DNA of 20,201 nucleotides from a virus, in IMG/VR virus record IMGVR_UViG_3300007722_000150, positions 1-20,201 of that record. One strand, written 5' to 3'. Position 1 is the stretch's first letter; each line of letters opens with the position of its first letter. Below the pieces are notes generated by a model. The model searched no databases, was not told the DNA's origin, and saw only the letters and a list, made by a program, of their open reading frames with translations. Of the stretch, positions 867 to 20,201 are shown one piece after another. Made by a program: the position numbers and the translations under genes.

Positions 867-1241
867 ATGACTGATGAGTTCAAGGTTGGGGTTAAATACA
901 TCACCAAATCCCACAAGTCGGCCATCTACATCTGCAAATCCGTCGTAGAGGATACCGACTATGGTCCTTTCGTCGTCCTGCTTCCCCAGTGTGCATCTGA
1001 TGGGTCGGATTTTATCACTGGCTATCAACAGGACTTTGATAGGGGTGACCTTGGGGGTTGGAAGGAGTTCAAGCCACCACCCCCACCCAAGAAACATAAG
1101 CGTTGGATTGTGTGGAGGAGAGACAGCCACGGGCACTTGGACCTCACCATCTTCAACCATGTCCCTAACCTGTCGATCGGCTCTTACTTTAACGGCTTCA
1201 CTACTATCTACATCGATGAAACTGTTTACACGGAGAACTAA
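867..1241 (+). CDS. unknown protein with a polyproline linker (124 aa)
   Basis: The ATG at 867 follows GAGG at 854-857. The protein has an N-terminal segment predicted by eye as beta-rich (KVGVKYITKSHKSAIYIC), a PPPPPKKHKR linker around residues 70-79, and a second half beginning RWIVWRRDSHGH. The two halves may be small separate domains joined by the proline stretch. Its stop overlaps the next ATG by one base (TAATG), so its translation is coupled to the gamma-glutamylcyclotransferase-like gene and it could belong to the same pathway. I do not recognise a family. Confidence 0.65.
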   Translation: MTDEFKVGVKYITKSHKSAIYICKSVVEDTDYGPFVVLLPQCASDGSDFITGYQQDFDRGDLGGWKEFKPPPPPKKHKRWIVWRRDSHGHLDLTIFNHVPNLSIGSYFNGFTTIYIDETVYTEN

Positions 1242-1642
1242 TGTACGTAGCTGTCTATGGTACCCTCAAGAAGGGGTACGGGAATAACAGATTGATGGAC
1301 CCACGTGGCTTTACGCTCGTGGGTTCTTTTGTGTCGGTGGACAAGTTTCACATGACATCAGGCGGGGGCTTCCCCATTGTCTACAAAGACATGAAGCAGC
1401 ATCACGTCAAGGTGGAAATCTACCGGGTCGATGATAAGGCTTATCTATCATCAGTCGACTCCCTTGAGGGTCACCCTACGTGGTATCGTCGGGAGCCTGT
1501 TGAGTTTGTCCCGGCTGATATGAGTGGTGGTGACATAGTCATCGCCGAAATGTACATACAAGACAAACCCCGCTCCACTCCCATGTATTATAACGTGCGG
1601 GTCAACAACAACATTGCAGAATGGGCAAGGTCGCATGACTGA
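1241..1642 (+). CDS. gamma-glutamylcyclotransferase-like (AIG2/GGCT fold) protein
   Basis: The 133-residue product opens with the family signature YGTLKKGYGNN (residues 6-16), which forms the substrate pocket, and carries the family's acidic residue at E76 in SLEGHPTWYRRE. Family members act on gamma-glutamyl amines or peptides and release 5-oxoproline plus the free amine. The length is typical for a single-domain member. Known fold members include gamma-glutamylaminecyclotransferase, which acts on gamma-glutamyl-lysine isopeptides. It is the first recognisable enzyme of an island otherwise full of amide-bond ligases and glutamine amidotransferases, which suggests it trims or recycles a gamma-glutamyl intermediate. 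Its end overlaps the next gene by 8 bases. The exact substrate cannot be read from sequence. Confidence 0.85.
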   Translation: MYVAVYGTLKKGYGNNRLMDPRGFTLVGSFVSVDKFHMTSGGGFPIVYKDMKQHHVKVEIYRVDDKAYLSSVDSLEGHPTWYRREPVEFVPADMSGGDIVIAEMYIQDKPRSTPMYYNVRVNNNIAEWARSHD

Positions 1643-2528
1643 GGCTATACGAAATCCGTTCCTTGATGAGGTTGTCAAGGTAACTCTCAAAGCTAACGCT
1701 AATGGGGTTTTTGATCTGGAGTTCCCCACCATGGCTAACGCCTTCTTCACCTATAAATCTTGGGGGGGTCGTAGTGCCGGGCACGGTGGGTGTTACGGGA
1801 ACACTCCAGGTTACATGGTTGAGAGACCCAACGACTGGTTCTACTATCCACCACCGTATAATCAAAACCCCCACAACGGTGAGAAGAAACTCAGCGAGAT
1901 TGTGGAGTACAACCACCTCGCATTCCTCCACCCCGACAGTCCCTTCTGCAAGATGGTCAACGGTCTTGACCAGTTCAAGGGATATGAGACGGACGATGAA
2001 AAGGCGCTTGTCATAGCCCGCTATGGCTTTGCCTTCTCAAAGAACGACCGTGTCAGGCTCACCATGCCACAGATTGGCAACCTTCTTGTGTTTTGGAAAC
2101 GTGCATTCATGACCATGTATGTGCGGCCTACATTCCTCCGCATGATGCGGGATGAAACGCACAGCAAGCGTCCTCTTGCGTGGAACATGCTTGCCTCTAC
2201 GTGGTGGGTTACCAACAATGAAGACACCTTGATCACTTTAGGGTTCGGTGATGGCCACCACATGGTGAGTCCCAACGCTTATCCCCACACTGTCAAGAAC
2301 TTCATCAACCACCGTCAAGCCGTCACCGCAAGGGACTGCGACAAGTGGGGGGAGGGGGCTCTCAACAGGGTCTTTGGTGCCAATTACAGAAGTAAATGTG
2401 CTCCCAGTTGGGAGGCTCCTTATTATGCGGTGTACGACCCTAAGTCACACTATATAAACCCCGCCTTCACAAACTTCGACGGTATCGTTGGGTGGTATTG
2501 GGACAATCGGGTGCAACCATGGTTGTAA
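1635..2528 (+). CDS. unknown 297-residue protein inside the amidoligase island
   Basis: The preferred start is the ATG at 1635 (MTEAIRNPFLDEV), with AAGG a few bases ahead. A TTG at 1614 in frame would add seven residues but lies deep in the previous gene. The protein is rich in Trp, Tyr, Phe, Asn and His (WFYYPPPYNQNP, LGFGDGHHMV, YWDNRVQPWL). It has no membrane segment, signal or nucleotide-binding motif that I recognise. Conserved-looking His/Asp clusters near the middle could bind metal, but this is only a guess. It overlaps both neighbours (8 and 10 bases), placing it firmly in the pathway operon. It may be a novel enzyme or the substrate-specificity component. Confidence 0.7.
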   Translation: MTEAIRNPFLDEVVKVTLKANANGVFDLEFPTMANAFFTYKSWGGRSAGHGGCYGNTPGYMVERPNDWFYYPPPYNQNPHNGEKKLSEIVEYNHLAFLHPDSPFCKMVNGLDQFKGYETDDEKALVIARYGFAFSKNDRVRLTMPQIGNLLVFWKRAFMTMYVRPTFLRMMRDETHSKRPLAWNMLASTWWVTNNEDTLITLGFGDGHHMVSPNAYPHTVKNFINHRQAVTARDCDKWGEGALNRVFGANYRSKCAPSWEAPYYAVYDPKSHYINPAFTNFDGIVGWYWDNRVQPWL

Positions 2529-3217
2529 CCTTGGTTCCTCCTCCCAATGTTGGCGTGTTCGTTCCTCAGTCCTCCCATATGATGCGGGAACTGCTCAGTA
2601 AATTGGGCAGGGAAGTATACTCGTTGGACGAGGCAGACATTGTCCTGTTTTCAGGTGGGTCGGATATCTCCTCCAGCCTGTATGGTGAGCCCGAGACCAA
2701 ATACACAAAATCCAACCCCCTACGTGATGCCGATGAGGTAAGTATCTTTGTGCGTACTGTTAACCGCACCAAGCCTATTGCCTATGTCGGTATCTGTCGG
2801 GGTGGGCAGCTGCTCAACGTGTTGAGTGGCGGCTCCTTGTGGCAGCATTGCCACGACCACGGATCAGGGCACACCATTCGTGACCTTGCAACTGACAAGC
2901 TCTACAACGTAACGTCCACTCACCACCAGATGATGCGAGCCCCCCTTCCTACACACAAGACACGGTTCTCTGTGCTTGCTGTTGCAACGAAGAAGGACTC
3001 ACCCGAGGTGGTCGTCAACACAATCAAGTTCGGGGCAAAAGAAGCTGATCTATCACACGACGGTATGGACATTGAGGCTATGTGGTATCCAGACACACGG
3101 TCGCTTTGCTTCCAGCCACACCCTGAACACTTTCAATCAGGAGATACGCAGAAGTTGTTCCTCGAATACTACCACAAACTTATTCTCCCCTCCCTCAAAC
3201 CACGGTTGATCAATTAA
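2519..3217 (+). CDS. class I glutamine amidotransferase / gamma-glutamyl hydrolase (peptidase C26-like)
   Basis: The ATG at 2519 gives 232 residues. The nucleophile elbow GICRGGQLLNV holds Cys93, and FQPHPEHF supplies His201 and Glu203, completing a class I catalytic triad. The FSGGSDISSSLYGE segment (residues 45-57) and the STHHQ segment are typical of the PuuD/peptidase C26 group, which hydrolyses gamma-glutamyl amides, rather than of amidotransferase subunits that feed a synthetase. No fused synthetase domain is present. Two roles fit: releasing glutamate from a gamma-glutamylated product, as PuuD does for gamma-glutamyl-GABA, or providing ammonia. The stop overlaps the next ATG by one base. 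The fold is secure, the substrate unknown. Confidence 0.87.
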   Translation: MVVTLVPPPNVGVFVPQSSHMMRELLSKLGREVYSLDEADIVLFSGGSDISSSLYGEPETKYTKSNPLRDADEVSIFVRTVNRTKPIAYVGICRGGQLLNVLSGGSLWQHCHDHGSGHTIRDLATDKLYNVTSTHHQMMRAPLPTHKTRFSVLAVATKKDSPEVVVNTIKFGAKEADLSHDGMDIEAMWYPDTRSLCFQPHPEHFQSGDTQKLFLEYYHKLILPSLKPRLIN

Positions 3218-4470
3218 TGTGCGGCTTAGTCGGAGTAGCGGGTAACCTCTTCAATCGTGAGATTGAAACCTTCAAGGACCTCTTGTATTGTTCGGAACGC
3301 CGGGGCTCAGATGCCACTGGTGTCGCTTCCTATGCTGTCCGAACGCAGGAGTGGAGGATTGCCAAGCAAGCCCTGCCTTCCCCTGTCTGGCTGGAAAGCA
3401 GGAAGAATGACCAAGTGATCAGCGCATCTGCTGATGTTCTTTTGGGGCACACACGTAAAGCTACGTATGCTTCCAAGCACCTGTGGGAGGATGCTCACCC
3501 GTTCAAATACGGTAGCATCATCGGCGCTCACAACGGTTCTATCCCATACCACAGCCTTCTCAAGCTGCCTCACCGGCTTACTGGGGTAATTGATTCGGAA
3601 GAGTTGATCTTCAATATCCACAAGGAAGGGATCGACGGGATCATCCCCAAGATTAACGGGGCATGGGCTTTGTCTCTTCTTGATGTGGACAACAAGAAGC
3701 TTGGCTTTGTTCGCAATGCCCAGCGACCGTTGCATATCTCCTTCTCCAAAGACAGGTCCAAGATGTATTGGGCGTCGGAGTCTGGTATGCTTCAGTGGTG
3801 TCTTGAACGCAACGACGTCGAGACCTACACGCCTATGCCTATCCCTCTCAAAGAGGATGTGTTCTACGAGATCGACTTGACGGGCAACCTGATTGCCGAC
3901 TCTATCACCGAACGCCCGCTCAAGGGGGCGGAGGAGGAAAAAAAGACCTGTCAACCGGCGTACAGAGGAGGCTATGGGGGGAGTCAGTACCCGGCGTTGA
4001 GTGGACCGAGTACTCCGATTGGTGGAAACACTACTAAGAAAGAGAAGAACATCACCCCTTACGATGCTATAAGCCGTGCCATCACTGGCATGGAGTATCG
4101 CTTGCTTGACTATGACTACTCACGTCAAGCTACGTGGTCCAAAAACATCAAAGGAAGGCACAGGCACCTAGTCACCCAACTTACTGCCGCTCGTCGATCT
4201 CGTACGAGGTTAGCCGGAACATCGGTTGCATTGAAAGAGGATGCTGAGATCATCGAGAAGCTTGGCATGTCTGAAGCTGTGTTCCGAGAAGTGTATGCTG
4301 AGATGGGGTGCTCATACTGTGCTGACAAATCATCAGACAACCTCGTTGTTGAGGGCTGTGAGCACACTAAGTCTGGTAAGATAATCTGTCCCGTGTGTGC
4401 CGCTGACCCTGAAGTCAGGCACGACTCTGGTCTTAACGCTGAAAAGGATGAAGTACTAGAATGCAACTAA
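3217..4470 (+). CDS. class II glutamine amidotransferase domain protein with C-terminal Cys cluster
   Basis: The protein begins MCGLVGVAGN, placing Cys2 as the N-terminal nucleophile after Met removal. SERRGSDATG, LGHTRKATYASK and IGAHNGSI are the further Ntn-hydrolase signatures seen in asparagine synthetase, GlmS and PurF. The glutaminase domain fills about residues 1-215. No synthetase, isomerase or phosphoribosyltransferase domain follows. Instead there is a Gly/Pro/Ser-rich linker (about 240-275), a helical basic segment, and a putative zinc module with Cys pairs CSYC and CPVC plus an intervening Cys near residues 365-400. It probably delivers ammonia or a glutamine-derived group to a partner ligase of the operon, with the C-terminal part as a docking module. 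It overlaps the following ligase gene by 10 bases. Confidence 0.88.
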   Translation: MCGLVGVAGNLFNREIETFKDLLYCSERRGSDATGVASYAVRTQEWRIAKQALPSPVWLESRKNDQVISASADVLLGHTRKATYASKHLWEDAHPFKYGSIIGAHNGSIPYHSLLKLPHRLTGVIDSEELIFNIHKEGIDGIIPKINGAWALSLLDVDNKKLGFVRNAQRPLHISFSKDRSKMYWASESGMLQWCLERNDVETYTPMPIPLKEDVFYEIDLTGNLIADSITERPLKGAEEEKKTCQPAYRGGYGGSQYPALSGPSTPIGGNTTKKEKNITPYDAISRAITGMEYRLLDYDYSRQATWSKNIKGRHRHLVTQLTAARRSRTRLAGTSVALKEDAEIIEKLGMSEAVFREVYAEMGCSYCADKSSDNLVVEGCEHTKSGKIICPVCAADPEVRHDSGLNAEKDEVLECN

Positions 4471-5237
4471 AAGTTGGCGCTGACCCTGAGTTCTTTCTGG
4501 TTGACAGGAACAAAGGTGTATACGTATCTGCTCACGATGTGGTTCCGGGAACCAAGGAAAACCCTCACCGTGTCAAGCAAGGTGCTGTCCAAGTTGACGG
4601 TACATCTGTTGAGTTCAACATCGACCCAGCCTCGACTGAGGAGGAGTTTGTTGACAACGTTCTGGTTGTCTTGTCGGAAATCCGCAATATGATCCCGATG
4701 AAATACGAGTTTCACTTCCGTCCCTATGTCAACTATGATCCTATCTACTTCAAGAAACTCCCTCGCTCAGCTGTGGACATGGGGTGTATTCCTGACTTCT
4801 CGGCGTACAGCTTTTCCGAGAACCCTCGCCCCGATAGCTCTGGCACCATCCGTACTGGTGCTGGGCACGTCCATGTGGGGTGGCTTGAAGGTGACAAGCT
4901 GTGGGATATGAATGAACACGGCATGGACCACCACTATGAGTGTGGGCGCATTGCTCGCAACCTTGACGTCACGCTTGGCATCCTTTCCCTTACGTGGGAT
5001 CGTGACCGTATCCGTCGCCGCCTGTATGGCAAGGCTGGAGCGTATCGTCCGAAGCCTTACGGCATCGAGTACCGTACTCTCTCCAACATGTGGCTGACGC
5101 ATAACGACTACATCCGTCAGGTGTATAGGGGCGCTATCGCGGGTGTCACTGACTACTTCGAGAACGGTGCAAGCTGCATGTTCATGCGTGAGCGTGCTGG
5201 AGCCACACAAGATCGTATTGACCGTGGTGTTGCATGA
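4461..5237 (+). CDS. phiEco32-type COOH-NH2 ligase (amidoligase)
   Basis: The ATG at 4461 gives 258 residues beginning MQLKVGADPEFFL, the N-terminal signature of the COOH-NH2 ligase type 2 group named after coliphage phiEco32. Members have a glutamine synthetase-like catalytic fold and are predicted to join a carboxylate to an amine using ATP. Visible fold elements are E10, VDGTSVEFNIDP (about 45-56), GHVHVGW (about residues 135-141) and an Arg/Glu-bearing stretch PYGIEYRTLSNMW, in the order expected for metal and nucleotide binding. The gene lies between the class II amidotransferase and a 220-residue unknown, with 10- and 4-base overlaps. The substrate is unknown. Confidence 0.9.
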   Translation: MQLKVGADPEFFLVDRNKGVYVSAHDVVPGTKENPHRVKQGAVQVDGTSVEFNIDPASTEEEFVDNVLVVLSEIRNMIPMKYEFHFRPYVNYDPIYFKKLPRSAVDMGCIPDFSAYSFSENPRPDSSGTIRTGAGHVHVGWLEGDKLWDMNEHGMDHHYECGRIARNLDVTLGILSLTWDRDRIRRRLYGKAGAYRPKPYGIEYRTLSNMWLTHNDYIRQVYRGAIAGVTDYFENGASCMFMRERAGATQDRIDRGVA

Positions 5238-5896
5238 CCACTGTTGCTGAGAAGTTTGCAGAGAACCCTCGGGATGCTGTTGAGAAACTTTCCAACATCA
5301 TCCTCAGATACAAAAACAACTGGGTGCAGATGGCAACTCTCACGGAGGATTTGTCTGCCTCCGTATTTGGCTTGAAAGGCGGCACGATTCGTTCTCTTCC
5401 TGACCAGATCTCACTACGGTCCATTGACACCAAGGACTTTGATGTCTCAACCTACCCTCTTGGGTACATGAGTACAGAGCAGGGCCTGTATTACCTCTCC
5501 CGCATTCCCTTACGACGTAACCGCTTTGGTCTTCGCTCGGAGAACACCCAAGTTGATATGGTTTGGGCAGATGTGGAGCTTGGGTCCCTTCGTAGTATCA
5601 TCTATGATCACGGGGTGGCATACGGCTCCTTGTGTGAAACCTTGGAAGGTAACTACTCTTCGTTTGAAGAATGTATGTCTTCTGTTGGCAACGGATCACG
5701 AGAAGCCTCCGCCTTCTCTCATGACTTCGCTGTCAAGCGAGCCACACGGTACGTGTCTCTCCTCATGTACAAAACTGATGTAGCTGGTGAGCTATCCGTT
5801 CGGGATGGCTGTGGAGAACTGTACCCCAGCTTCGTACACCTCGCAGAACGTGCTGTTCTGGCCGGGGTCCCCACTTCTTATCTATCACAAAGGTAG
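5234..5896 (+). CDS. unknown 220-residue protein between the two amidoligases
   Basis: It starts in an ATGA overlap with the COOH-NH2 ligase stop, so it is translationally coupled. The N-terminal 45 residues look helical (MTTVAEKFAENPRDAVEKLSN), followed by mixed alpha/beta sequence with DVELGSLRSIIYDHGVAYGS and a Cys-containing segment ETLEGNYSSFEEC. I see no catalytic motif I can name, no signal peptide and no membrane segment. Its position between two amidoligases makes it a candidate acceptor protein, scaffold or unrecognised enzyme of the pathway. There is no evidence to choose among these. Confidence 0.7.
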   Translation: MTTVAEKFAENPRDAVEKLSNIILRYKNNWVQMATLTEDLSASVFGLKGGTIRSLPDQISLRSIDTKDFDVSTYPLGYMSTEQGLYYLSRIPLRRNRFGLRSENTQVDMVWADVELGSLRSIIYDHGVAYGSLCETLEGNYSSFEECMSSVGNGSREASAFSHDFAVKRATRYVSLLMYKTDVAGELSVRDGCGELYPSFVHLAERAVLAGVPTSYLSQR

Positions 5897-5902
5897 CGAT
5901 AC

Positions 5903-7027
5903 GTGTTCACCAAGCCGACACTGACAAAGGACCAACTCACTAACGTGATGGCCTACTACACAACCGCGTCCCTCTATAGCAAGGACCGGAACATAGGACT
6001 GGAACTGGAGCTTGAGGGCTTCGGAGCCGAGGCTATGGGGTACTCGGAGTTCTGCAAGTCCTTTGCCCCTCACCGTGATCCCTCTTTGCGGGGGGATTGC
6101 GTAGAGCTTGTTCTTCGTCGCCCTTGCAACATCAGGGAGATTGAGGAGAAGGTCATACCTGAGTTTGAAAGGCTCAAGGAGGCTACCCGATTCAAGCCCT
6201 CGCTGTCTTCTCGCTGCTCCTTCCACGTCCATCTGGATTTCTCCCACAGGACCTTGTATACCTTCGTCAAGTTCCTTACCTTGTATGCCTTGTATGAACC
6301 TCACTTCTTTGAGGTGGTTGGGTCCGAGCGTAAAGGCAATCACTTCTGCCTCCGACTCATGGACTCCCCTAAATACGTCAAAGACACCGTTGACGGCATC
6401 AAGAAGGTCAATTTCCAACCCATCTCCGGTGAGAACCTCCGGTACATGGCCCTCAATCTTCAATCTCTGTGGAAGTTTGGGTCGGTTGAGATTCGCCTGC
6501 ATGAAGGTGTGTCTGAGTCCAAGGAAATCCTGCGGTGGCTTCATGTCCTTATGGAGCTTGTGACGTTTGCTGAAAACAGCTACGACTTCAAGCCTGACGA
6601 GATTATCTATGCTGTGTCAGGTGAGAGCCTTCCGGGGTTCACCATGCGCCATCTTCCCCTCACTCACGAGTTTGTGAAGGAGGCTTACGCCAAGGTGTCT
6701 TACCGAGAGTCCGTTGATATCGCTCAGGACTACGCTTGTGCTGTGGATTGGGTGAATGCCCCTACGGAGGGGGCTGCCCCGGTGACACCAGTAAAAAAGG
6801 CACGAATAACTTCACGTTCTACGCTTCCACCTCTACGAGCACCTCTACAACCACAAGTTGACAACCAAACTATTGGTTTCCGTTTAGATGCTGCGCCGAT
6901 ACTCCCTCTTACAGAGGACCGTTGGACCATACAGAATGATCCAGTAATAGAAGACGATCATGAAGAAGAGGATGACGAAGATGAAGATGAGGAAGAGGAT
7001 GACGAAGATGAAGAAGAGGAGTTCTAG
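5903..7027 (+). CDS. putative amidoligase (Amidoligase_2-like) with acidic tail
   Basis: Translation from the GTG at 5903 follows AAAGG at 5889-5893 and gives 374 residues. The domain (about 30-225) shows glutamine synthetase-like fold marks: GLELELEGFG (E34/E36), a conserved Arg/Asp region, SFHVHLDFS and FGSVEIRLHEG. They occur in the same order as in the amidoligase family of bacteria, fungi and phages, and the protein is distinct from the type 2 ligase upstream. Residues 226-300 look helical, followed by a Pro/Thr-rich stretch. The last 25 residues are almost entirely Asp and Glu, encoded by GAT/GAA/GAG repeats. Such a tail may recruit a basic partner or a metal. It probably forms an amide bond on a substrate shared with the other ligases. 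Confidence 0.85.
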   Translation: MFTKPTLTKDQLTNVMAYYTTASLYSKDRNIGLELELEGFGAEAMGYSEFCKSFAPHRDPSLRGDCVELVLRRPCNIREIEEKVIPEFERLKEATRFKPSLSSRCSFHVHLDFSHRTLYTFVKFLTLYALYEPHFFEVVGSERKGNHFCLRLMDSPKYVKDTVDGIKKVNFQPISGENLRYMALNLQSLWKFGSVEIRLHEGVSESKEILRWLHVLMELVTFAENSYDFKPDEIIYAVSGESLPGFTMRHLPLTHEFVKEAYAKVSYRESVDIAQDYACAVDWVNAPTEGAAPVTPVKKARITSRSTLPPLRAPLQPQVDNQTIGFRLDAAPILPLTEDRWTIQNDPVIEDDHEEEDDEDEDEEEDDEDEEEEF

Positions 7028-7028
7028 T

Positions 7029-7790
7029 ATGAGGCTTAGAGACTTTCTGGTTGTTGTCCCGTACAAGAAGGCATCAGCCGGGAGCAAGGCCATCGCCAAG
7101 GGATTGAAGGTTGAACGTATTAATCACCCTGAATTGATCAGAGGTGGCCACCACGTCATCAACTGGGGGAATACCAAATGGCGTTCACCTGTTGCTGCGC
7201 GAATATACAACAAGCCTGAGAACTTGGCTAACGCTGTGAACAAGCTCAAGGCATTCCGTATCTTGGAAGAGGCTCGCGTGCCTATCCCCGCGTACACCAC
7301 CGACAAGCACCAAGCCGAGGAGTGGCTTCGACAGAAGGGCACCATCGTTGTGTGTCGTCGGCTGCTTTCGGCATCGGGTGGCAAAGGCATCGTCATTGCC
7401 AAAAATAGAGTTGACATTGTTGACTCCCCGTTGTATACTAGGTATGTGAAGAAGAAGCGGGAGTACCGGGTCCATGTCTTCCAAGGCAGGATCATAGGTT
7501 ACAAGCGTAAGATCAAGCACCGTGGTGTAGAGACTAGCTCTGACTACGTGCGGTCTCACAGTAACGGCTACAGGTACATCATTGACCCTGAGCACCCACC
7601 TAGCCAGTCAGTCCTTGATGCTGCTGTAGCAGCTTGTGGAGCCCTCCGGCTGGACTTCGGAGGGGTTGATGTCATGTGGGTCAAGAAAGGTGACAAGTCA
7701 TACGTGCTTGAGGTCAACTGTGCTCCCGGTCTCACTGACATGACTGGTCAATGGTATATTGATGCATTCAAACGGAAGTACAGAGAATGA
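7029..7790 (+). CDS. ATP-grasp ligase (RimK-like)
   Basis: The ATG at 7029 (MRLRDFLVVVPYKK) lies seven bases after GAGGAG at 7016-7021. Upstream in-frame ATGs read through the shadow of the acidic tail of the previous gene and are rejected. In 253 residues it shows the ATP-grasp order: an N-terminal pre-ATP region, the glycine-rich loop SASGGKGIVIAK (114-125), REYRVHVF (144-151), the metal-binding segment RLDFGGVDVMWV (207-218) and LEVNCAPGLTDM (227-238). This group activates a carboxylate as an acyl phosphate and couples it to an amine, as RimK does in adding glutamate. It is the third ATP-dependent amide-forming enzyme of the island and probably adds amino acids or a similar unit. Confidence 0.92.
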   Translation: MRLRDFLVVVPYKKASAGSKAIAKGLKVERINHPELIRGGHHVINWGNTKWRSPVAARIYNKPENLANAVNKLKAFRILEEARVPIPAYTTDKHQAEEWLRQKGTIVVCRRLLSASGGKGIVIAKNRVDIVDSPLYTRYVKKKREYRVHVFQGRIIGYKRKIKHRGVETSSDYVRSHSNGYRYIIDPEHPPSQSVLDAAVAACGALRLDFGGVDVMWVKKGDKSYVLEVNCAPGLTDMTGQWYIDAFKRKYRE

Positions 7791-8540: not shown

Positions 8541-10189
8541 ACTGTGGGTCATCGGACGGACTAGCCATATTCGACGACGGACACACTCATTGCTTTGTGT
8601 GTAGTCGCACTACCCAAAACAAATACATCCCACCATCAGGAAAACCTGATGTACAAGAGGAGAAGAAAATCAAAGCTCCACCACCTAATACCGAGAAAAG
8701 GTCTATTCGGCCTGTGCCTACAGATTTCAAGGCTCTCGAAGACCGTCAAATCTCTACCGATACAGCCCGACTGTACAAGTTCGGGTACTACGAAGACGGT
8801 GCGTACATACATACCTACCCCCGGTTCCGTAACGGTTCCCATATAGCCAATCAATTCAGGCTACGTGGCAAGAAAGATTTCCGGTGGGAGGGTTCCCAAG
8901 ATAAGATGGAACTGATTGGCCAGCACGCATTCCCTGCGGGCTCAGCCAAGTCGATAACTATCACGGAAGGTGCCTGCGATGCAGCTGCCAGCTACGAACT
9001 ACAAGGGTCCAAGTGGCCTGTCGTTGGCGTCACAGCAGCATCCACAGCCCGTAAGGAGGTGCTTGATAACTTCGAGTATCTAGCCTCGTTCGAGAACATC
9101 GTAATCTGTATGGACTCAGATGATCCGGGGCGGGAAGCCGCTATGCGTATCGCTGAAATTCTCCCCCTTGGGCGCACCAAGATTGTAACCATGCGCCGAC
9201 ACAAGGACCCTAACGACTACCTCCGTGCAAACATGCAGAAGGAGTATATGAGCGAGTGGTGGGGTGCTCCCCTCTACATGCCCGCTGCTCTCCGTACTGG
9301 TAAGGAGTTGTGGAAGGAGATTGAAACACCTCCTGAACTCAGCTTCCTTGATTACCCGTGGGCTACCCTTACCGAGAAGACATACGGTATGCGGCAATCC
9401 GAGCTTATCATCCTCAACGCTGAGACGGGGGTGGGTAAGACCACTGTTACCAACATGATCTCTTATCACATCCTTCGGAATACCCCGGATGATGTGAAGA
9501 TCGGTCAAATGAAATTGGAGGAAACCAATCGCGATTCTGGTCTTGGCCTGCTTAGTATTCACGCAGGTCGTCGTCTCCATCTTCCTGATGAATGGGCTGC
9601 GACGAGCCCAGAGGAACTACGCGGACTCTATGACGAAGTCCTTAATAACGACCGCGTTGTTTTTTGGGATCACTTTGGTTCAAATAGCATTCATGCTGTT
9701 CTCGCTAAAATCCAACATATGGCTGCATTGGGCTGTAGGTATGTGGTACTGGATCACCTCAGTATCATTGTATCTGACCAGTCCGGGGACGAAAGGAAGC
9801 AGCTGGACGAAATCATAACGAAGATCAAGACTGAGTGTATGAAGCTCAAGATTTGTGTCATCGCTGTCATTCACCAGAACAGGCAGGGCCAGATCAGGGG
9901 TACAGCAGGCGTCGAGCAGCTGGCTAACGACATTCTCAAGCTTGAGCGTGAGCGTGAGAGCCCTGATAATTGGCGTCGTAACGTAGTCAAGATAACTATC
10001 CAGAAGAACCGATTTGCTGGCGCTGGTGGTCACGTCTACCTGTTCTTTGACAGCAAGACAGGACTCCTTACTGAACTCAGTAAAGATGAGATTAACGTCT
10101 ACGAGAAAGGTGGGACTGTCGTGTCTACTGCCCCTGTGCGAGAAGGTTCATGGGACTTTGATCTGGAGAATGAAGCAGCAGCGGTATGA
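8479..10189 (+). CDS. T7-type DNA primase-helicase (apparent frame shift at its start)
   Basis: The main frame is open from 8480. It encodes a T7 gp4-type zinc-binding domain (HSPCLDCGSSDG and THCFVC, about 8525-8602), a TOPRIM primase domain (ITITEGACDAA; MDSDDPGREAA) and a RecA-type helicase with Walker A NAETGVGKTT near 9417-9446, a Walker B-like YVVLDHLSII and an H4-like segment VIAVIHQNRQGQIRG. It synthesises RNA primers and unwinds DNA 5'-3'. No ATG, GTG or TTG precedes the zinc finger in this frame. The ATG at 8479 is one base out of frame, and a +1 shift at CCC AAA (8503-8508) would give MEQHNGTAPKAKFLRHSPC, a natural N-terminus. A GTG at 8597 is in frame but cuts the finger in half. 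ACG at 8492, seven bases after GGAG, is another option. The stop overlaps the polymerase ATG. Confidence 0.88.
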
Positions 10190-11994
10190 AATACCTAAGC
10201 TATGATGAGAACTACTGGTCTCTAGACGTCGAGGCAGATAGCCTTAAGCCAACCCAAATCTGGGTGGTACGAACAAAAAACATAAGAACGGGAGAGAAAT
10301 GTTCGTTCAGAACAGCCAAAGACTTCAACGAGTGGATGAGCGATGAAAAAATCATCATCGCGTTTAATGGCCTCCATTATGATATTCCTGTACTGCGCTC
10401 TCTTTGGGGCGCTGATATTCCCACTTCTCGTTGTATTGATCCCATGCTTCTTGGGTATCTGCTTGATCCTTATCTTTCTGGGGGCCATTCGCTAGAAGCT
10501 TGGGGTCATCGAGTTAAACTCCCCAAGATATCGTTTGATGACTACTCAAGGTACACCCCCGAGATGGAGGTGTATTGTGAGCGAGATGCAGATATCTGCG
10601 CCCGTGTCTATGTTGCCCTTTGCAACAAGCTGACAGCCATGAGGTACTCCGAATCCGCTATCTGGATTGAGCACCACTTCGCAGCTGTTATCGAGGAACA
10701 ACAAGTCAACGGGTTCAAGTTCGACCTTGAAGGAGCCGAGAAGCTCTACAAGGAACTCCGTGATAAAGAGGCTGAGCTTAATGAACACATCAGAAACTTT
10801 TTCCCTGCCCGGCTTAAGTCAGCCGGTACATATCAGTATCGCATCACAAAACAGGGCGAGCCGTACTCTTCTTACATTAAACATACCGAACGATATCCTG
10901 AAGTCCGAAGGTATGAGGACGGCACTTATGAGTGCTTTGAGTATCAACATTTCAACGTTGGGTCACCAACTCAACGGCTCTCACGTCTGCTAGAGCATGG
11001 GTTTAAGCCAACAAAGAAAACCAAGACAGGGGGATGGGCAACAGGTGAAGATGTTGTTCTAGAGTTCTTTGAAGAAAGTGGGATACCGGAGGTTGGGATG
11101 ATCGCAGAGTGGCTTGTTCACAACGGGCGAGCCAACATGCTTAACAACTGGTTGGAGAATCTTGATCGTGCTGATAATTGCATTCGTGGTTCTGTTTTTA
11201 CATGTGGTGCTGGTAGTCGTCGCTGCCGCCATGCTAGCCCTAACACCGCAAACATCCCGAGCACAGAGTCTAAGTTTGGGGCTGAGTGCCGTTCTCTGTG
11301 GCGTGCTAGGGATGGCCGCGTGTTGGTGGGGATTGACGCAGCTGGTCTAGAGGGGCGTGTTCTGGTCCACTATCTCGGAGGCCGTAAAGACGCCTACGAC
11401 TACATCATCGACACCCAAAACGCTTTCGGTGTCAAGGACTTCCACACTTTGAACGCCCAGCAGCTTACCAAAGCTGGTATCCCCAAGGAGAGAAAGCCAT
11501 GCAAGAACGACTTCTACGCCATGATCTACGGCGCACAAGACAAGAAGCTAGGAGCAATGTCAGGTGGTGATGAAGCCCTTGGAGCCCGTATCCGACACGT
11601 CCTCGGAGACGCAGTCCCCGGTTTGGGGGGCCTTATGGAAGAAGCTGGTAACGAATTTAAAAGCACGGGGGGCATCCTTCGAACAGTTGACGGAGGATTT
11701 GTCAGATGCCCCTCACCGCACGCGGCGCTTAACTACAGATGTCAGTCGTGTGGAGCGATCATCATGAAACTAGGAGCAATCCTACTAGACAGGGAGATTA
11801 AGAAACATGGATGGGATGCACTCAAAGTTGGAGACATCCACGACGAATGGCAATACGACTGTGACCCTGACTGTTCAGAACTTGTCGGACAAGCAGGTAT
11901 CGAAGCTATTAAGCTGGCTGGCGTCAAGCTTAAGATTCGCGTACCCCTCGATGGAACTTACGCGATTGCCGCCAATTGGGCAGGAACCCACTAA
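10186..11994 (+). CDS. T7-like family A DNA polymerase with 3'-5' exonuclease
   Basis: This is the replicative polymerase, starting in an ATGA overlap with the helicase. The exonuclease domain shows SLDVEADSL (Exo I), AFNGLHYDIPVL (Exo II) and a third acidic motif YCERDADIC. The polymerase domain has an RHASPNTANIP segment matching the T7 region before motif A, then motif A GIDAAGLEGRVL (catalytic D384, the Glu of the steric gate present), motif B KNDFYAMIYGA (K440, Y444) and motif C DIHDEWQ (D553, E554). At 602 residues it is about 100 shorter than T7 polymerase (704). Whether a thioredoxin-binding loop exists cannot be settled by eye. It pairs with the primase-helicase upstream and the SSB downstream. 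Confidence 0.96.
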   Translation: MKYLSYDENYWSLDVEADSLKPTQIWVVRTKNIRTGEKCSFRTAKDFNEWMSDEKIIIAFNGLHYDIPVLRSLWGADIPTSRCIDPMLLGYLLDPYLSGGHSLEAWGHRVKLPKISFDDYSRYTPEMEVYCERDADICARVYVALCNKLTAMRYSESAIWIEHHFAAVIEEQQVNGFKFDLEGAEKLYKELRDKEAELNEHIRNFFPARLKSAGTYQYRITKQGEPYSSYIKHTERYPEVRRYEDGTYECFEYQHFNVGSPTQRLSRLLEHGFKPTKKTKTGGWATGEDVVLEFFEESGIPEVGMIAEWLVHNGRANMLNNWLENLDRADNCIRGSVFTCGAGSRRCRHASPNTANIPSTESKFGAECRSLWRARDGRVLVGIDAAGLEGRVLVHYLGGRKDAYDYIIDTQNAFGVKDFHTLNAQQLTKAGIPKERKPCKNDFYAMIYGAQDKKLGAMSGGDEALGARIRHVLGDAVPGLGGLMEEAGNEFKSTGGILRTVDGGFVRCPSPHAALNYRCQSCGAIIMKLGAILLDREIKKHGWDALKVGDIHDEWQYDCDPDCSELVGQAGIEAIKLAGVKLKIRVPLDGTYAIAANWAGTH

Positions 11995-12015
11995 CTATAT
12001 TACAAAGGTAATTTG

Positions 12016-12423
12016 ATGAGCCCAGATAAAAACTTGGCCCTAGTAATCAAGTACCCTGAGATTTTCAGGGACCGACGGGGCAACATGCAGGAAACCGCCA
12101 TGTGTTGGGGTTTTGACTGTGGGGATGGGTGGTATGATATCTTGGATAGGCTTTGTGCCACTCTTATAGAGTTGTCAAAAGAGGCGTACCCCCCACATAT
12201 CCCAGTAGCCTCACAGGTTAAAGAAAAGTATGGGGGACTTCGGTTCTATCTGGTGTCCGGGACGCGTGCCCAGTACGACGCTTGTGCCACAGCTGAACTT
12301 GAGTCAGAAAAAACTTGTGAACAATGTGGGGAGCCCGGCGAGATAAGGGGAAGGGGTTGGTTTTACGCAGCTTGTGATGCTCATAACAGAGAAGATGATA
12401 AAAGTATTGACATCGAGCCCTAG
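12016..12423 (+). CDS. conserved phage protein of unknown function with C-terminal CxxC (135 aa)
   Basis: The ATG at 12016 has AAGG at 12005-12008, seven bases ahead. The product carries a pattern I recall from many phage and bacterial proteins without assigned function: CWGFDCGDGWYDILDRLC (about residues 29-46), then VKEKYGGLRFYLVSG, then TCEQCGEPGEIRG with one further Cys, probably a zinc ribbon. It lies between the polymerase and SSB genes. Its last codons and stop overlap promoter P2, so transcription through it may compete with P2. Confidence 0.75.
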   Translation: MSPDKNLALVIKYPEIFRDRRGNMQETAMCWGFDCGDGWYDILDRLCATLIELSKEAYPPHIPVASQVKEKYGGLRFYLVSGTRAQYDACATAELESEKTCEQCGEPGEIRGRGWFYAACDAHNREDDKSIDIEP

Positions 12424-12435
12424 TCACGGTATAAT
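12407..12435 (+). promoter_or_regulatory. sigma70 promoter P2 (SSB/nuclease operon)
   Basis: Perfect TTGACA (12407-12412), a 17-base spacer and perfect TATAAT (12430-12435) are present. The -35 and part of the spacer lie in the last codons of the preceding gene, whose TAG is inside the spacer. Expected start near 12442, about 28 bases before the SSB start codon. The spacer shares GCCCTAGT at the same offset with promoter P3, and both continue GGTATAATA then TAGGTAGA. Confidence 0.85.
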
Positions 12436-12469
12436 ATAGGTAGAAGTTCAACAAAGGAGACCAACTAAG

Positions 12470-13051
12470 TTGGCAAAAGCTAAGCTAGAGACCACCATCA
12501 TTCAGGCGGAAGCCTATTGGTGCAAACTTATCGGTAAGCCCCGTGATTCCTACGATGGGAAGCACAAGGAGTGGACCGTTGATATTGTTCTTGACAAAGC
12601 TGGGTTGAAGTCCCTCAAGGACTTCGGTATTGATCCCTTCTACGTCAAGAAAGGCAAGACGAACAAAGACGGTACGATTAACTACCTGACAGGTAAGCCG
12701 GTACTCAAACTTGTCCGTAAATCTGTTCGGTCGGATGGCTCCCCAGCCAACCCTGTACAGATCAGGGACGCTACTGGTGAGCCTTGGAACGGTGATCTGA
12801 TTGGCAACGGTTCTGTTGTCAACATCAAGATCATGAAGTTTGAGGTGGCTCTCCCTAACCAACCTCGTCGAATGAAGCCCTATCTGCTTGAGATGCAGGT
12901 GTGGGACCTTGTGCTGTATGAAGGTGGTGGCAGCGATGGTGGCTTCCCCACAAAAGAGAAAGCTGTTGGTAAAGATGGTGATGACTTCGACTTTGGTGAG
13001 AACACCAACCACCAGAAAGACGTAGACTTCGACGACGAAATTCCGTTCTAA
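12470..13051 (+). CDS. single-stranded DNA-binding protein (T7 gp2.5-like)
   Basis: Start is the TTG at 12470 (MAKAKLETTIIQAEAYW), nine bases after AAGGAGA. It is the first gene after promoter P2. The 193-residue product has a beta-rich, basic OB-fold-like body (VRKSVRSDGS; NGDLIGNGSVVNIKIMKFEV). It ends in a flexible acidic tail DVDFDDEIPF, the hallmark of phage and bacterial SSBs, which recruits replication proteins through its final aromatic residue. Position among replication genes and size (T7 gp2.5 is 232 residues) agree. It binds exposed single strands and should contact the polymerase and helicase. Its stop overlaps the exonuclease ATG by one base. Confidence 0.88.
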   Translation: MAKAKLETTIIQAEAYWCKLIGKPRDSYDGKHKEWTVDIVLDKAGLKSLKDFGIDPFYVKKGKTNKDGTINYLTGKPVLKLVRKSVRSDGSPANPVQIRDATGEPWNGDLIGNGSVVNIKIMKFEVALPNQPRRMKPYLLEMQVWDLVLYEGGGSDGGFPTKEKAVGKDGDDFDFGENTNHQKDVDFDDEIPF

Positions 13052-18552: not shown

Positions 18553-19326
18553 TTATTCGGACGGAAGGGGGTTGTTCTTCTCCGTGGCTGGCTGGAGTGG
18601 GCCCTCCCTCAAGTTATCAGTCTTGGGCTCAATGGGGTGTAGGGGGTCAGGCACAGCCTGTCTGTCAATCCCCAGTTGTTCAAGGTTGGTCCAGTCGCCT
18701 TGTGCGTTCTGGTCCCGCGCCTGCTGCCGTAGGTCTTTATTCTGCTGGTTCTTTCGGCTGGCGATCTCATCCCCAACCTTTTTGAGTGCAGCAGTCAAGT
18801 CCTCATCTTTGAAGTGTCTGAGGTCTTGGTATCCGTTGTCAATCTGCTCACCCACCTGTGGGCCAGACTCCCCGTTGTCTATCACGGCGGGGCGCGGTTG
18901 GCTCATGGCCCTGTCAACGGCTTTTTGGCGTAACTCTCGGGCAATACGGCCCCCTTCTTTGAAGCCCGCGTCCTCCAAGTTATTCCCGATTACTTCCCAC
19001 GACTCTCCGTGGTTATGACCGTTTTCAATGATCCAGTTGGCGTGCATACGCTTTGTGGTTTCATCTGGCTCAGACTTCTTCATGACAGGGTCACGACGCT
19101 TCGCTACACCGATCTGGTTTTTGATCCAGTCGTTGTCAACGGCTACACCGTTCTCCTTGAGTGCTCTAACAACATCGGCGTGGCTACCACCGTTTCTCAA
19201 AGCCTTCTCGATTTCAAACTTGGCAAGGTTGCCTTTTGAAATGGTTCTGCCTTCGATGGTGACAATATCTTCTAGTGCTTTGGGGAGCTTCAGAGCTTTG
19301 GCTAACGCTCCAAGGGGTGGGGGCAT
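18553..19326 (-). CDS. probable virion-associated protein, unknown (257 aa)
   Basis: On the minus strand the ATG at 19324-19326 follows AAGGATT by seven bases. The product starts MPPPLGALAKALKLPKALED and is highly hydrophilic and helical (LTAALKKVGDEIASRKNQQNKDLRQQARDQNAQ), rich in Asn, Gln, Lys and Glu, with no membrane segment or Cys. It follows the transglycosylase-bearing protein by ten bases in the same operon, so a structural or internal virion role is likely. Its compact, disordered-looking C-terminal third would also fit a scaffold. I do not recognise a family. Confidence 0.65.
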   Translation of the reverse strand: MPPPLGALAKALKLPKALEDIVTIEGRTISKGNLAKFEIEKALRNGGSHADVVRALKENGVAVDNDWIKNQIGVAKRRDPVMKKSEPDETTKRMHANWIIENGHNHGESWEVIGNNLEDAGFKEGGRIARELRQKAVDRAMSQPRPAVIDNGESGPQVGEQIDNGYQDLRHFKDEDLTAALKKVGDEIASRKNQQNKDLRQQARDQNAQGDWTNLEQLGIDRQAVPDPLHPIEPKTDNLREGPLQPATEKNNPLPSE

Positions 19327-19336
19327 GTGTTAATCC

Positions 19337-20201
19337 TTATTGCTTGGGGGTTTCAAGAACGATACCGTCGTTCTTCAAGTAGTCCGTTATAGGCATCTGA
19401 GCATCAGGCATACCCATCTCTTCCATGTAGGCTGAGAACGTCGGGTCGTTCCTGTGAAGTCTTGCATTCCACATCTGGAGGAGGGTGTTGTCACCCGACT
19501 TGGTGAGTTCTGGGTTGCTTTTGATAATGTTATCAGAAAAGAAGTCCTTCGTCTTTGTAGAAGAGTCCTCCCTCAACGCTTTCATGAATTTGATAGCCCC
19601 GCCTGCCCCGAGGAGGTGGGCCATGTTCAACTCCTCGAACGAAGGAGGAGCCCCCGCCGCCTTTTTCAGGGCTTCGTAGTTCTTAGCTGTGAAGTGGTCG
19701 AAGACCTGATCTTCGATAACCGGATCAGCCATCAATTCCCACCGCTGCTTCCGAGTCATCTCAGCAGCCTCTGGCATGATCTCAATCAAGTTAGCATCCC
19801 ACGTTGTTGGAGGTGAGGATGGGGATTTTCCTTTAGGGCTCAGCTCTTGCTTGTAGTCATTCAAGAACCCGTAGGTACCCGACGCAGAAGACCTGTTCAG
19901 GTTGTGGGCTTGGTTGCCTGAGATGTTGGCCCCACCTTCTGTCTTACCCATCATGACCCTGTACCCATCCATGTTGGTGATTTGGACGTAGGTATTAGGA
20001 GTGCTGTTGATCAATGAACGGGTCCTGTAGGATGTGGCCATCATGTTGGCTAGGGTCATGTTGGAGAAGTCTAGCTGCGGGTACTGGGTGCCCTCTTTGA
20101 TGTTCTTGATGGTTTTGTAGAACTGGCTCTTGGCAGTCAGGAGTTCCGGGTCCTTGGAGGCGCTGACCCAGTTATCAATCGCCTTACCGAGGTTTGCCTC
20201 T
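19337..20201 (-). CDS. virion protein with lytic-transglycosylase-like domain, 5' end beyond window
   Basis: The minus-strand frame is open from the window edge at 20201 through an internal ATG at 20059 to its stop at 19337, so at least 287 residues are present and the N-terminus lies outside. Residues read from the internal Met show GKTEGGANISGNQAHNLNRSSASGTYGF, written in two halves as the catalytic-type Glu in KTEGGAN and the SSASGTYGF strand of the SLT/lysozyme fold. Later ELNMAHLLGAGGAIKFMKAL is typical of the helical part of such domains. Phage virion proteins with this domain cut peptidoglycan during DNA entry. The upstream sequence (AIDNWVSASKDPELL) is a helical extension. The 20059 ATG should not be taken as the start. 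Confidence 0.8.
   Translation of the reverse strand, partial: EANLGKAIDNWVSASKDPELLTAKSQFYKTIKNIKEGTQYPQLDFSNMTLANMMATSYRTRSLINSTPNTYVQITNMDGYRVMMGKTEGGANISGNQAHNLNRSSASGTYGFLNDYKQELSPKGKSPSSPPTTWDANLIEIMPEAAEMTRKQRWELMADPVIEDQVFDHFTAKNYEALKKAAGAPPSFEELNMAHLLGAGGAIKFMKALREDSSTKTKDFFSDNIIKSNPELTKSGDNTLLQMWNARLHRNDPTFSAYMEEMGMPDAQMPITDYLKNDGIVLETPKQ

What the first reader, a model, noticed from the sequence alone, without database searches (positions are those of the whole stretch)
1241..7790. Phage-borne pathway of three ATP-dependent amide ligases with two amidotransferases and gamma-glutamyl enzymes
Eight genes joined by 1-10 base overlaps or gaps of at most 6 bases encode a GGCT-fold protein, C26-type class I amidotransferase, stand-alone class II amidotransferase, phiEco32-type COOH-NH2 ligase, a second amidoligase, a RimK-like ATP-grasp ligase and two unknown proteins. 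Amidoligase/ATP-grasp clusters in phages are known from computational work on phiEco32-type genomes and were predicted to modify peptides or make novel metabolites; I know of no confirmed product. The set here seems unusually complete. It spends about 6.5 kb of a compact genome. Possible products: a gamma-glutamyl tag on host protein or peptidoglycan, an amino-acid adduct on DNA bases, or a small metabolite.
Basis: partly seen in the sequence, partly recalled or inferred. Interest (0 to 1): 0.85.

Follow-up and report, generated by a model that had tools for sequence, protein, structure and literature searches.

The report
Conserved phage amide-ligase operon
Eight tightly packed phage genes encode a machine that makes and breaks glutamate-type amide bonds; the set was already known in outline and is shared by hundreds of phages, but its product is unknown, and two of its constant parts (one never recognised as a single family) belong to no characterised family.

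Summary
Eight genes at 1241-7790 overlap by 1-10 bases or lie 1-6 bases apart: GGCT (g), unknown U, C26-type class I amidotransferase fold (I), class II amidotransferase (II), PF14395 COOH-NH2 ligase (CN), unknown '6', Amidoligase_2 (AL) and a RimK-like ATP-grasp (AG). It is not unusually complete: the set is usual in Zobellviridae, LUZ24-like, phiEco32-like and some crAss-like phages. Across 168 loci it has two gene orders, both containing CN-6-AL. Catalytic residues of all six enzyme families are nearly invariant. C26 and GGCT substitute for each other: 103 of 107 complete clusters have at least one. Both cleave gamma-glutamyl amides in characterised relatives, so the chemistry probably passes through one. 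New here: U is an almost constant member, hidden in several 'unknown' PHROGs, with an invariant Cys and Arg. CN is about as conserved as the replication genes, while '6' and especially U diverge fastest, as expected of target-recognition subunits. Best guess (0.4): a gamma-glutamyl/aminoacyl conjugation-and-editing machine acting on a macromolecular target chosen by U and '6'. The product is unproven. Bulk DNA modification is unlikely: LUZ24-like DNA is cut normally. New member of a known, uncharacterised kind.

The parts
1241..1642 (+). g: gamma-glutamyl cyclotransferase-fold protein (GGACT/AIG2-like), YGTLKKG motif, catalytic-type Glu76
   Evidence: PF06094 2.9e-15, phrog_2520, PDB AIG2-like match; E76 invariant in 77 aligned members
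1635..2528 (+). U: 297-aa protein of unknown function, divergent member of a constant cluster family; invariant Cys (Cys53, codon 1791-1793) and Arg in the family
   Evidence: hhalign with the TC6_056 family prob 76.6, E 2.1e-5, against at most 1.6 for seven control families; Cys 109/109 and Arg 117/117 in family columns
2519..3217 (+). I: C26-type class I amidotransferase-fold protein, gamma-glutamyl-amide hydrolase type; Cys93, His201, Glu203, SxHHQ motif
   Evidence: PF07722 1.1e-16, phrog_7218, NCBIfam gamma-glutamyl-CDP-amidate hydrolase and PuuD below cut-off, PDB 3fij/7d4r, conservation
3217..4470 (+). II: class II (Ntn) amidotransferase domain with N-terminal Cys2 (MCG), glutamine-site residues R80, N106, G107, D126, and a C-terminal region without a known synthetase domain
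   Evidence: PF13522 2.8e-11, phrog_4736 7e-57; residues 99-100% conserved in 172 members
4309..4398 (+). putative zinc ribbon of II: C365, C368, C391, C394
   Evidence: four cysteines 95-98% conserved in 172 members; zinc binding not tested
4461..5237 (+). CN: phiEco32-type COOH-NH2 ligase type 2; E10, E51, H136, H138, E203, R205
   Evidence: PF14395 1.5e-7, phrog_3815 2.6e-65; residues 100% conserved in 171 members
5234..5896 (+). '6': 220-aa non-catalytic-looking protein, N-terminal SH3/Sm-like barrel plus a domain without a match, almost always between CN and AL
   Evidence: phrog_11055; AlphaFold pLDDT 88.8, pTM 0.84; weak SH3/Sm-like matches, Z up to 4.5; clear structural relatives only among phage proteins
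5903..7027 (+). AL: Amidoligase_2; E34, E36, E38, H108, H110, E196, R198; GTG start
   Evidence: PF12224 1.4e-10, phrog_7469 1.4e-40; residues 99-100% conserved in 166 members
6953..7024 (+). acidic C-terminal tail of AL ending in Phe (DDHEEEDDEDEDEEEDDEDEEEEF), resembling acidic-aromatic tips of replication proteins
   Evidence: statistics
7029..7790 (+). AG: RimK-like ATP-grasp ligase; K72, E145, R147, K161, D214, E228, N230
   Evidence: PF08443 2.8e-5, PF02655 6.2e-6, phrog_2599 3e-62, NCBIfam MptN/RimK below cut-off, PDB RimK, conservation
8597..13051 (+). neighbouring replication genes (primase-helicase, DNA polymerase A, SSB-like protein with DDEIPF tip), next to which the operon usually lies; not part of the operon
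   Evidence: Pfam; helicase within 4 kb downstream in 110 of 151 decidable loci

Best explanation
A phage operon for a gamma-glutamyl/aminoacyl amide conjugation-and-editing machine encoded next to the replication genes. Shown from sequence: three intact ATP-dependent ligase types (CN, AL, AG), an intact glutamine-site Ntn enzyme (II), and one or two gamma-glutamyl-amide-cleaving enzyme types (C26 and/or GGCT) that replace each other. Inferred: II takes ammonia (or the gamma-glutamyl unit) from glutamine; CN carries out one fixed small-molecule amide ligation, probably on a glutamate gamma-carboxyl; AL and AG extend or transfer it; I/g trim, unmask or recycle the gamma-glutamyl unit, as BtrG, PuuD/SpuA and gamma-glutamyl-CDP-amidate hydrolase do (general knowledge). 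Also inferred: '6' and the fast-evolving Cys-containing U recruit the acceptor, most likely a host protein or another macromolecule rather than bulk DNA.
For: Catalytic residues nearly invariant in all enzyme families. Conserved gene order over very diverse phages. Of 107 complete clusters, I only 54, g only 35, both 14, neither 4 (Fisher 1.6e-12, not corrected for phylogeny), and g occupies I's slot in L005, L075 and L080. I matches gamma-glutamyl hydrolase models best. Pairwise similarities within the cluster correlate (CN-AL 0.71, CN-6 0.61) more than with helicase (0.36) or polymerase (0.16), so the module moves largely as a unit. At median helicase identity 69%: CN 64, I 51, AG 49, II 39, AL 37, '6' 32, U 16. 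No transmembrane-like segment in any cluster protein. Operon beside helicase or SSB genes in unrelated phages.
Against: No substrate, product or phenotype is known. Fast divergence of U and '6' could be relaxed constraint rather than host-driven change. Substitution of I by g follows clades in part. A macromolecular acceptor is inferred only from the two non-enzymatic subunits, the cysteine ribbon and the absence of a carrier or exporter. The AL acidic-aromatic tail is absent from many relatives (33 of 108 sequence clusters end in F/W/Y, 16 acidic as well).
Confidence: 0.4

Rival explanations
1. The operon makes a free small metabolite, for example a gamma-glutamyl polyamine, a gamma-glutamyl di- or tripeptide, or a glutathione-like compound. 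I/g remove or recycle the gamma-glutamyl group, and U and '6' are structural partners of the enzymes.
For: C26 relatives act on gamma-glutamyl polyamines, GABA and CDP-amidate (PuuD/SpuA function from general knowledge). CN, the most conserved member, would do fixed small-molecule chemistry. GCS-like plus ATP-grasp plus GGCT recalls the glutathione cycle.
Against: Does not by itself explain two constant, fast-evolving, non-enzymatic subunits or the cysteine ribbon of II. No transporter or carrier protein in the operon.
Confidence: 0.25
2. The enzymes alter the host cell envelope (peptidoglycan stem peptide or surface polymer) and so block superinfection, the prediction made computationally for phiEco32-type clusters.
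For: This is the published proposal (Iyer et al. 2009, not held here; reported as a suggestion in PMC10580990 and repeated in PMC11318856). Cytosolic amide ligases can act on cell-wall precursors.
Against: No envelope-related gene and no membrane-like segment in the operon. Position beside replication genes rather than lysis or tail genes. The named hosts are mostly Gram-negative with varied surfaces.
Confidence: 0.15
3. Auxiliary metabolism: the genes raise nitrogen assimilation or amino-acid supply of the infected cell.
For: Proposed for phage ZRK32, which carries these genes, with growth effects on a Pseudomonas (PMC10945688).
Against: The ZRK32 record is 85% identical over 80% of its length to Pseudomonas phage SCYZ1, so its assignment to a planctomycete is doubtful. 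Found in phages of many host types. U and '6' would have no role.
Confidence: 0.08
4. The pathway places an amino-acid adduct on phage DNA bases to evade host nucleases.
For: Position beside primase-helicase, polymerase and SSB genes. The AL tail resembles the acidic-aromatic tips of SSB and helicase in the same phages.
Against: LUZ24-like phage DNAs, including P2-10pyo (the record vB_PaeP_p2-10_Or1 carries CN), are cut by EcoRI, HindIII, Sau3A and AluI (PMC3634792); phage Delta DNA is cut by BamHI (PMC8540360). No base hydroxymethylase or other base-hypermodifying gene was noticed in the annotated stretches of TC6, CW02 or tf.
Confidence: 0.06

Closest known systems
phiEco32-type phage amidoligase/ATP-grasp clusters (Iyer et al. 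2009; annotated in phiEco32, LUZ24, tf, TC6/PA11, CW02)
   Same: Same enzyme families plus '6', same tight packing, same place beside primase-helicase; CN 32-48% identical
   Different: phiEco32 and LUZ24-like phages use the other gene order and lack the C26 protein; the window has both C26 and GGCT; U is very divergent
Operon of Zobellviridae-like relative G001 (IMG/VR 3300017780_002852, 49.9 kb)
   Same: g-U-I-II-CN-6-AL-AG in the same order; replication genes 65-83% identical
   Different: U 27%, '6' about 30%, II 41%, AL 48% identical; AL tail ends in REEEL, not EEEEF
Butirosin BtrJ/BtrG, polyamine PuuA/PuuD (SpuA) and capsular gamma-glutamyl-CDP-amidate hydrolase pathways
   Same: Logic of a gamma-glutamyl amide made by a ligase and opened by GGCT or a C26 hydrolase
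   Different: No carrier protein, sugar or polyamine gene here; ligases are of other families; C26 scores far below those equivalog cut-offs
RimK / MptN alpha-glutamate ligases
   Same: ATP-grasp fold and catalytic residues
   Different: Below the NCBIfam cut-offs (35 of 143 and 52 of 350 bits); acceptor unknown
Ergothioneine EgtA-EgtC pair and stand-alone class II gamma-glutamyl hydrolases
   Same: GCS-like ligase with a stand-alone class II domain; weak EgtC match (21 bits)
   Different: II is closest to GFAT/AsnB-type domains, not EgtC, and carries a cysteine ribbon

Membership tests
phiEco32-type phage amidoligase cluster | PF14395 COOH-NH2 ligase with Amidoligase_2, RimK-like ATP-grasp and class II amidotransferase in one operon | tested here: met
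   All over Pfam cut-off in adjacent genes; spacing
phiEco32-type phage amidoligase cluster | GGCT and/or class I amidotransferase-fold partner | tested here: met
   Both present in the window; at least one in 103 of 107 complete clusters
phiEco32-type phage amidoligase cluster | Conserved order including CN-6-AL, beside replication genes | tested here: met
phiEco32-type phage amidoligase cluster | Defined product or cell-wall function | not testable with these tools
   Only predicted in the literature reached here; the founding paper is not held
C26 gamma-glutamyl hydrolase (PuuD-like) | PF07722 over cut-off with Cys-His-Glu triad and SxHHQ motif | tested here: met
   61.8 bits vs 20.5; C93, H201, E203, H135, H136, Q137 conserved in 98 members
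PuuD / gamma-glutamyl-CDP-amidate hydrolase equivalogs | NCBIfam equivalog cut-off | tested here: not met
   24.6 of 266 and 27.4 of 250 bits
Class II (Ntn) glutamine amidotransferase | N-terminal Cys and glutamine-site residues | tested here: met
   C2, R80, N106, G107, D126; PF13522 44 vs 27 bits
Class II (Ntn) glutamine amidotransferase | Fused or partner synthetase receiving ammonia | tested here: inconclusive
   No known synthetase domain in II; partner unknown
RimK alpha-L-glutamate ligase | NCBIfam rimK_fam cut-off | tested here: not met
   35.4 of 143.4 bits; Pfam RimK domain is met (24.3 vs 21)
Carboxylate-amine ligase (GS/PafA) fold for U | Clear structural match | tested here: inconclusive
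   Best second-look match PafA 4bjr Z 4.4, rmsd 4.1, 175 aligned; another row has the same Z and this is within the usual noise
Known anti-phage defence genes | PADLOC model match | tested here: not met
   No match for any of the eight at E 0.01

The most novel reading that the evidence does not exclude
The operon is a phage-encoded, target-directed protein-tagging machine. CN/AL/AG build and attach a gamma-glutamyl-type tag to a host protein, U (invariant Cys, perhaps a thioester carrier) with '6' selects the target and evolves with it, C26/GGCT edit the tag, and in some lineages the AL tail docks the machine on the replisome.
Probability: 0.15. Interest if true: 0.85.

Novelty: new member of a known kind. 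Interest (0 to 1): 0.52.

Why it matters
At least 317 of 50,697 phage records, including model E. coli phages of the BASEL set, carry the key ligase of this roughly 6.5-kb set, yet nobody knows what it makes. The conserved core defined here (CN-6-AL, II, AG, U, and I or g), the interchangeability of C26 and GGCT, and the conservation gradient from CN to U turn an old computational prediction into a short list of tests: gamma-glutamyl amide chemistry, CN as the invariant step, and U/'6' as the likely target-binding parts. A new amide modification in infected cells would be a new phage weapon or counter-defence and could yield new ligases.

Tried and rejected
Finding close relatives of CN with a single-sequence scan: nothing; alignment queries worked. 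Independent baits in the phage records ('6'; U of TC6) returned largely phages already seen with CN. Relating U to CN, AL or '6' by profile: no signal; CN and AL do not detect each other either, so this is uninformative. PDB search by sequence for CN, U, '6' and AL: no credible hit. Fold search: for '6' only SH3/Sm-like barrels at low Z; for U nothing significant. AL tail as a universal replisome tag: rejected, since the marine B-type group ends in DKLCxx and other groups vary. DNA modification considered and put low. Promoter scan at chance level (8 found, 7.1 expected); the terminator-like excess (12 against 5.6) lies mostly inside coding sequence and was not used. First assumption that tf_17/18, phi32_87/88 and cr108_300/329 are not U-like: profile scores are weak, but each has a C-[FY]-[GA] motif at residues 20-48 (background 42 of 481 for a slightly looser motif) in the U position, so they are probable U relatives, not proven.
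Full report
OBSERVATION. The window is a 20,201-base virus record with replication genes related to those of Zobellviridae and cobaviruses. Bases 1241-7790 carry eight same-strand genes: g, U, I, II, CN, 6, AL, AG. Successive genes overlap by 1-10 bases or are separated by 1-6 bases. Pfam and PHROGs confirm the six enzyme families. U matches no library; '6' is phrog_11055, unknown. PADLOC finds no defence gene.

RELATIVES. CN finds 317 of 50,697 phage records, no plasmid and only 11 loci, all in metagenome-assembled genomes, among 84,980 bacterial and archaeal species, most of which carry the same phage operon. So it is a phage system. Hosts include Pseudomonas, Escherichia, Vibrio, Salinivibrio and Aeromonas, and the carriers include two crAss-like phages. 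Two scans of IMG/VR with CN alignments and annotated phages gave 168 loci including the window.

CO-OCCURRENCE AND ORDER. In the first 87 loci: II 87, CN 87 (bait), '6' 86, AL 85, AG 84, I 75, U 68, g 27. Over 168 loci there are two main orders, A = (g)-U-I-II-CN-6-AL-AG and B = U-CN-6-AL-II-AG-g. CN is the bait, so its count is by construction, and contig ends hide some genes. Searches from '6' and from U without that bait return largely the same phages. Pairwise similarities correlate inside the cluster (CN-AL 0.71, CN-6 0.61, AL-II 0.58) more than with helicase (0.36 for CN) or polymerase (0.16), so the module travels largely as a unit; AG is the loosest part.

CATALYTIC RESIDUES. In alignments of 77-172 members the expected active-site residues are nearly invariant in g, I, II, CN, AL and AG. 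II also has four conserved cysteines at its C-terminus, a likely zinc ribbon. The non-enzymatic '6' has only four positions conserved at 85% or more.

GAMMA-GLUTAMYL CHEMISTRY. Of 107 clusters with enough flank, 54 have I only, 35 g only, 14 both and 4 neither (Fisher 1.6e-12, not corrected for relatedness). In L005, L075 and L080 g sits exactly where I sits elsewhere. Characterised relatives of both cleave gamma-glutamyl amides (general knowledge), and the best NCBIfam models for I are gamma-glutamyl-CDP-amidate hydrolase and PuuD, though far below their cut-offs. This interchangeability is the best available clue that a gamma-glutamyl amide is an intermediate or product; it is an inference.

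THE TWO UNKNOWN PARTS. The window's U joins the family of TC6_056 by profile comparison (prob 76.6, E 2.1e-5; seven control families at most 1.6). Family members fall in PHROGs 27195, 34254 and 38092, all unknown; the probable relatives in LUZ24-like and phiEco32 phages fall in 7973, 13102 and 13063. In the family's aligned columns one Cys (109 of 109) and one Arg (117 of 117) are invariant. AlphaFold gives a confident fold for a marine member (pLDDT 85.6, pTM 0.88), but no solved structure matches with significance. '6' folds confidently (pLDDT 88.8) with an N-terminal SH3/Sm-like barrel at low Z; its only clear structural relatives are phage proteins.

RATES. Where helicases are 60-90% identical (median 69), median identities are CN 64, polymerase 61, I 51, AG 49, g 49, II 39, AL 37, '6' 32 and U 16 (values use whole open frames, which lowers U somewhat). 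Against the nearest relative, G001, the window's replication genes are 65-83% identical while U is 27% and '6' about 30%. A fixed ligation step (CN) with quickly changing non-enzymatic partners suggests target recognition; relaxed constraint is the alternative.

LINK TO REPLICATION. A primase-helicase gene lies within 4 kb downstream in 110 of 151 decidable loci. In the one B-type marine locus inspected, an SSB-like gene with an acidic tail ending in Phe follows. crAss-like clusters also sit among replication genes. In the first 87 loci AL ends in F, W or Y in 35 of 84 cases, against 0-15% for the other cluster families. Acidic-aromatic ends are otherwise typical of SSB (33 of 37) and some helicases (8 of 82), never of the polymerase (0 of 74). 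Over all loci after grouping, 33 of 108 AL clusters end aromatic and 16 are acidic as well, and whole clades lack this. It is a lead only.

MECHANISM. Best guess: glutamine-derived ammonia or gamma-glutamyl units feed CN, the fixed step; AL and AG extend or transfer; I/g edit or unmask; U and '6' choose a macromolecular acceptor. Shown: gene set, order, intact active sites, interchangeability, rates. Inferred: substrates, direction, acceptor. Bulk DNA modification is unlikely because LUZ24-like DNAs are cut by EcoRI, HindIII, Sau3A, AluI and BamHI (PMC3634792, PMC8540360). The published cell-wall/superinfection idea (Iyer et al. 2009, not held; quoted in PMC10580990 and PMC11318856) and the nitrogen-metabolism idea (PMC10945688) are untested for the enzymes; one paper already cites the former as if established. 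The phage behind the latter looks like a Pseudomonas phage.

NOVELTY. The cluster type is known and annotated piecemeal; no characterised product was found in the papers searched (bioRxiv and most subscription journals not held). New here: U as a probably universal core member with an invariant Cys, the I/g interchange, the two gene orders, and the rate gradient.

Noticed in passing
L187 (OP650935.1, phage ZRK32), 1-21911: The 'chronic phage of a planctomycete' of PMC10945688 is 84.8% identical over 80% of its length to Pseudomonas fluorescens phage SCYZ1, with weaker matches to LUZ24-like Pseudomonas phages; the record is flagged UNVERIFIED. Its host assignment and the nitrogen-metabolism claim for these genes look doubtful.
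   Followed up: partly
L006 (MT135025.1, Vibrio phage V07, 294511-313257): A 349-kb Straboviridae record flagged UNVERIFIED contains the whole podovirus-type amidoligase operon; its '6' matches those of 50-kb Vibrio phages at the same residues and identity, so the record may be chimaeric.
   Followed up: no
window 12470-13051: SSB-like protein without Pfam or PHROG match, ending in DDEIPF; 68-69% identical in relative G001.
   Followed up: partly
window 18553-20059 (- strand): Minus-strand genes beyond the class II RNR match late-region frames of G001 at 44-46% identity, one with a weak transglycosylase match, so they diverge much faster than the replication genes.
   Followed up: no
L180 7989-13441: A Deltaproteobacteria MAG contig has two PF14395-like proteins separated by an SSB-like and a helicase-like gene, without the rest of the operon: perhaps an ancestral or different use of CN.
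   Followed up: no
L181 10296-11756 and L182 10726-12273: crAss-like AL proteins carry about 195 extra N-terminal residues before the amidoligase domain, and no separate '6' gene was detected among the annotated neighbours; the extension may replace '6'.
   Followed up: partly
L035, L044, L054, L062, L063 and others: Some clusters carry extra ATP-grasp or CN genes, so the number of ligation steps may vary.
   Followed up: no
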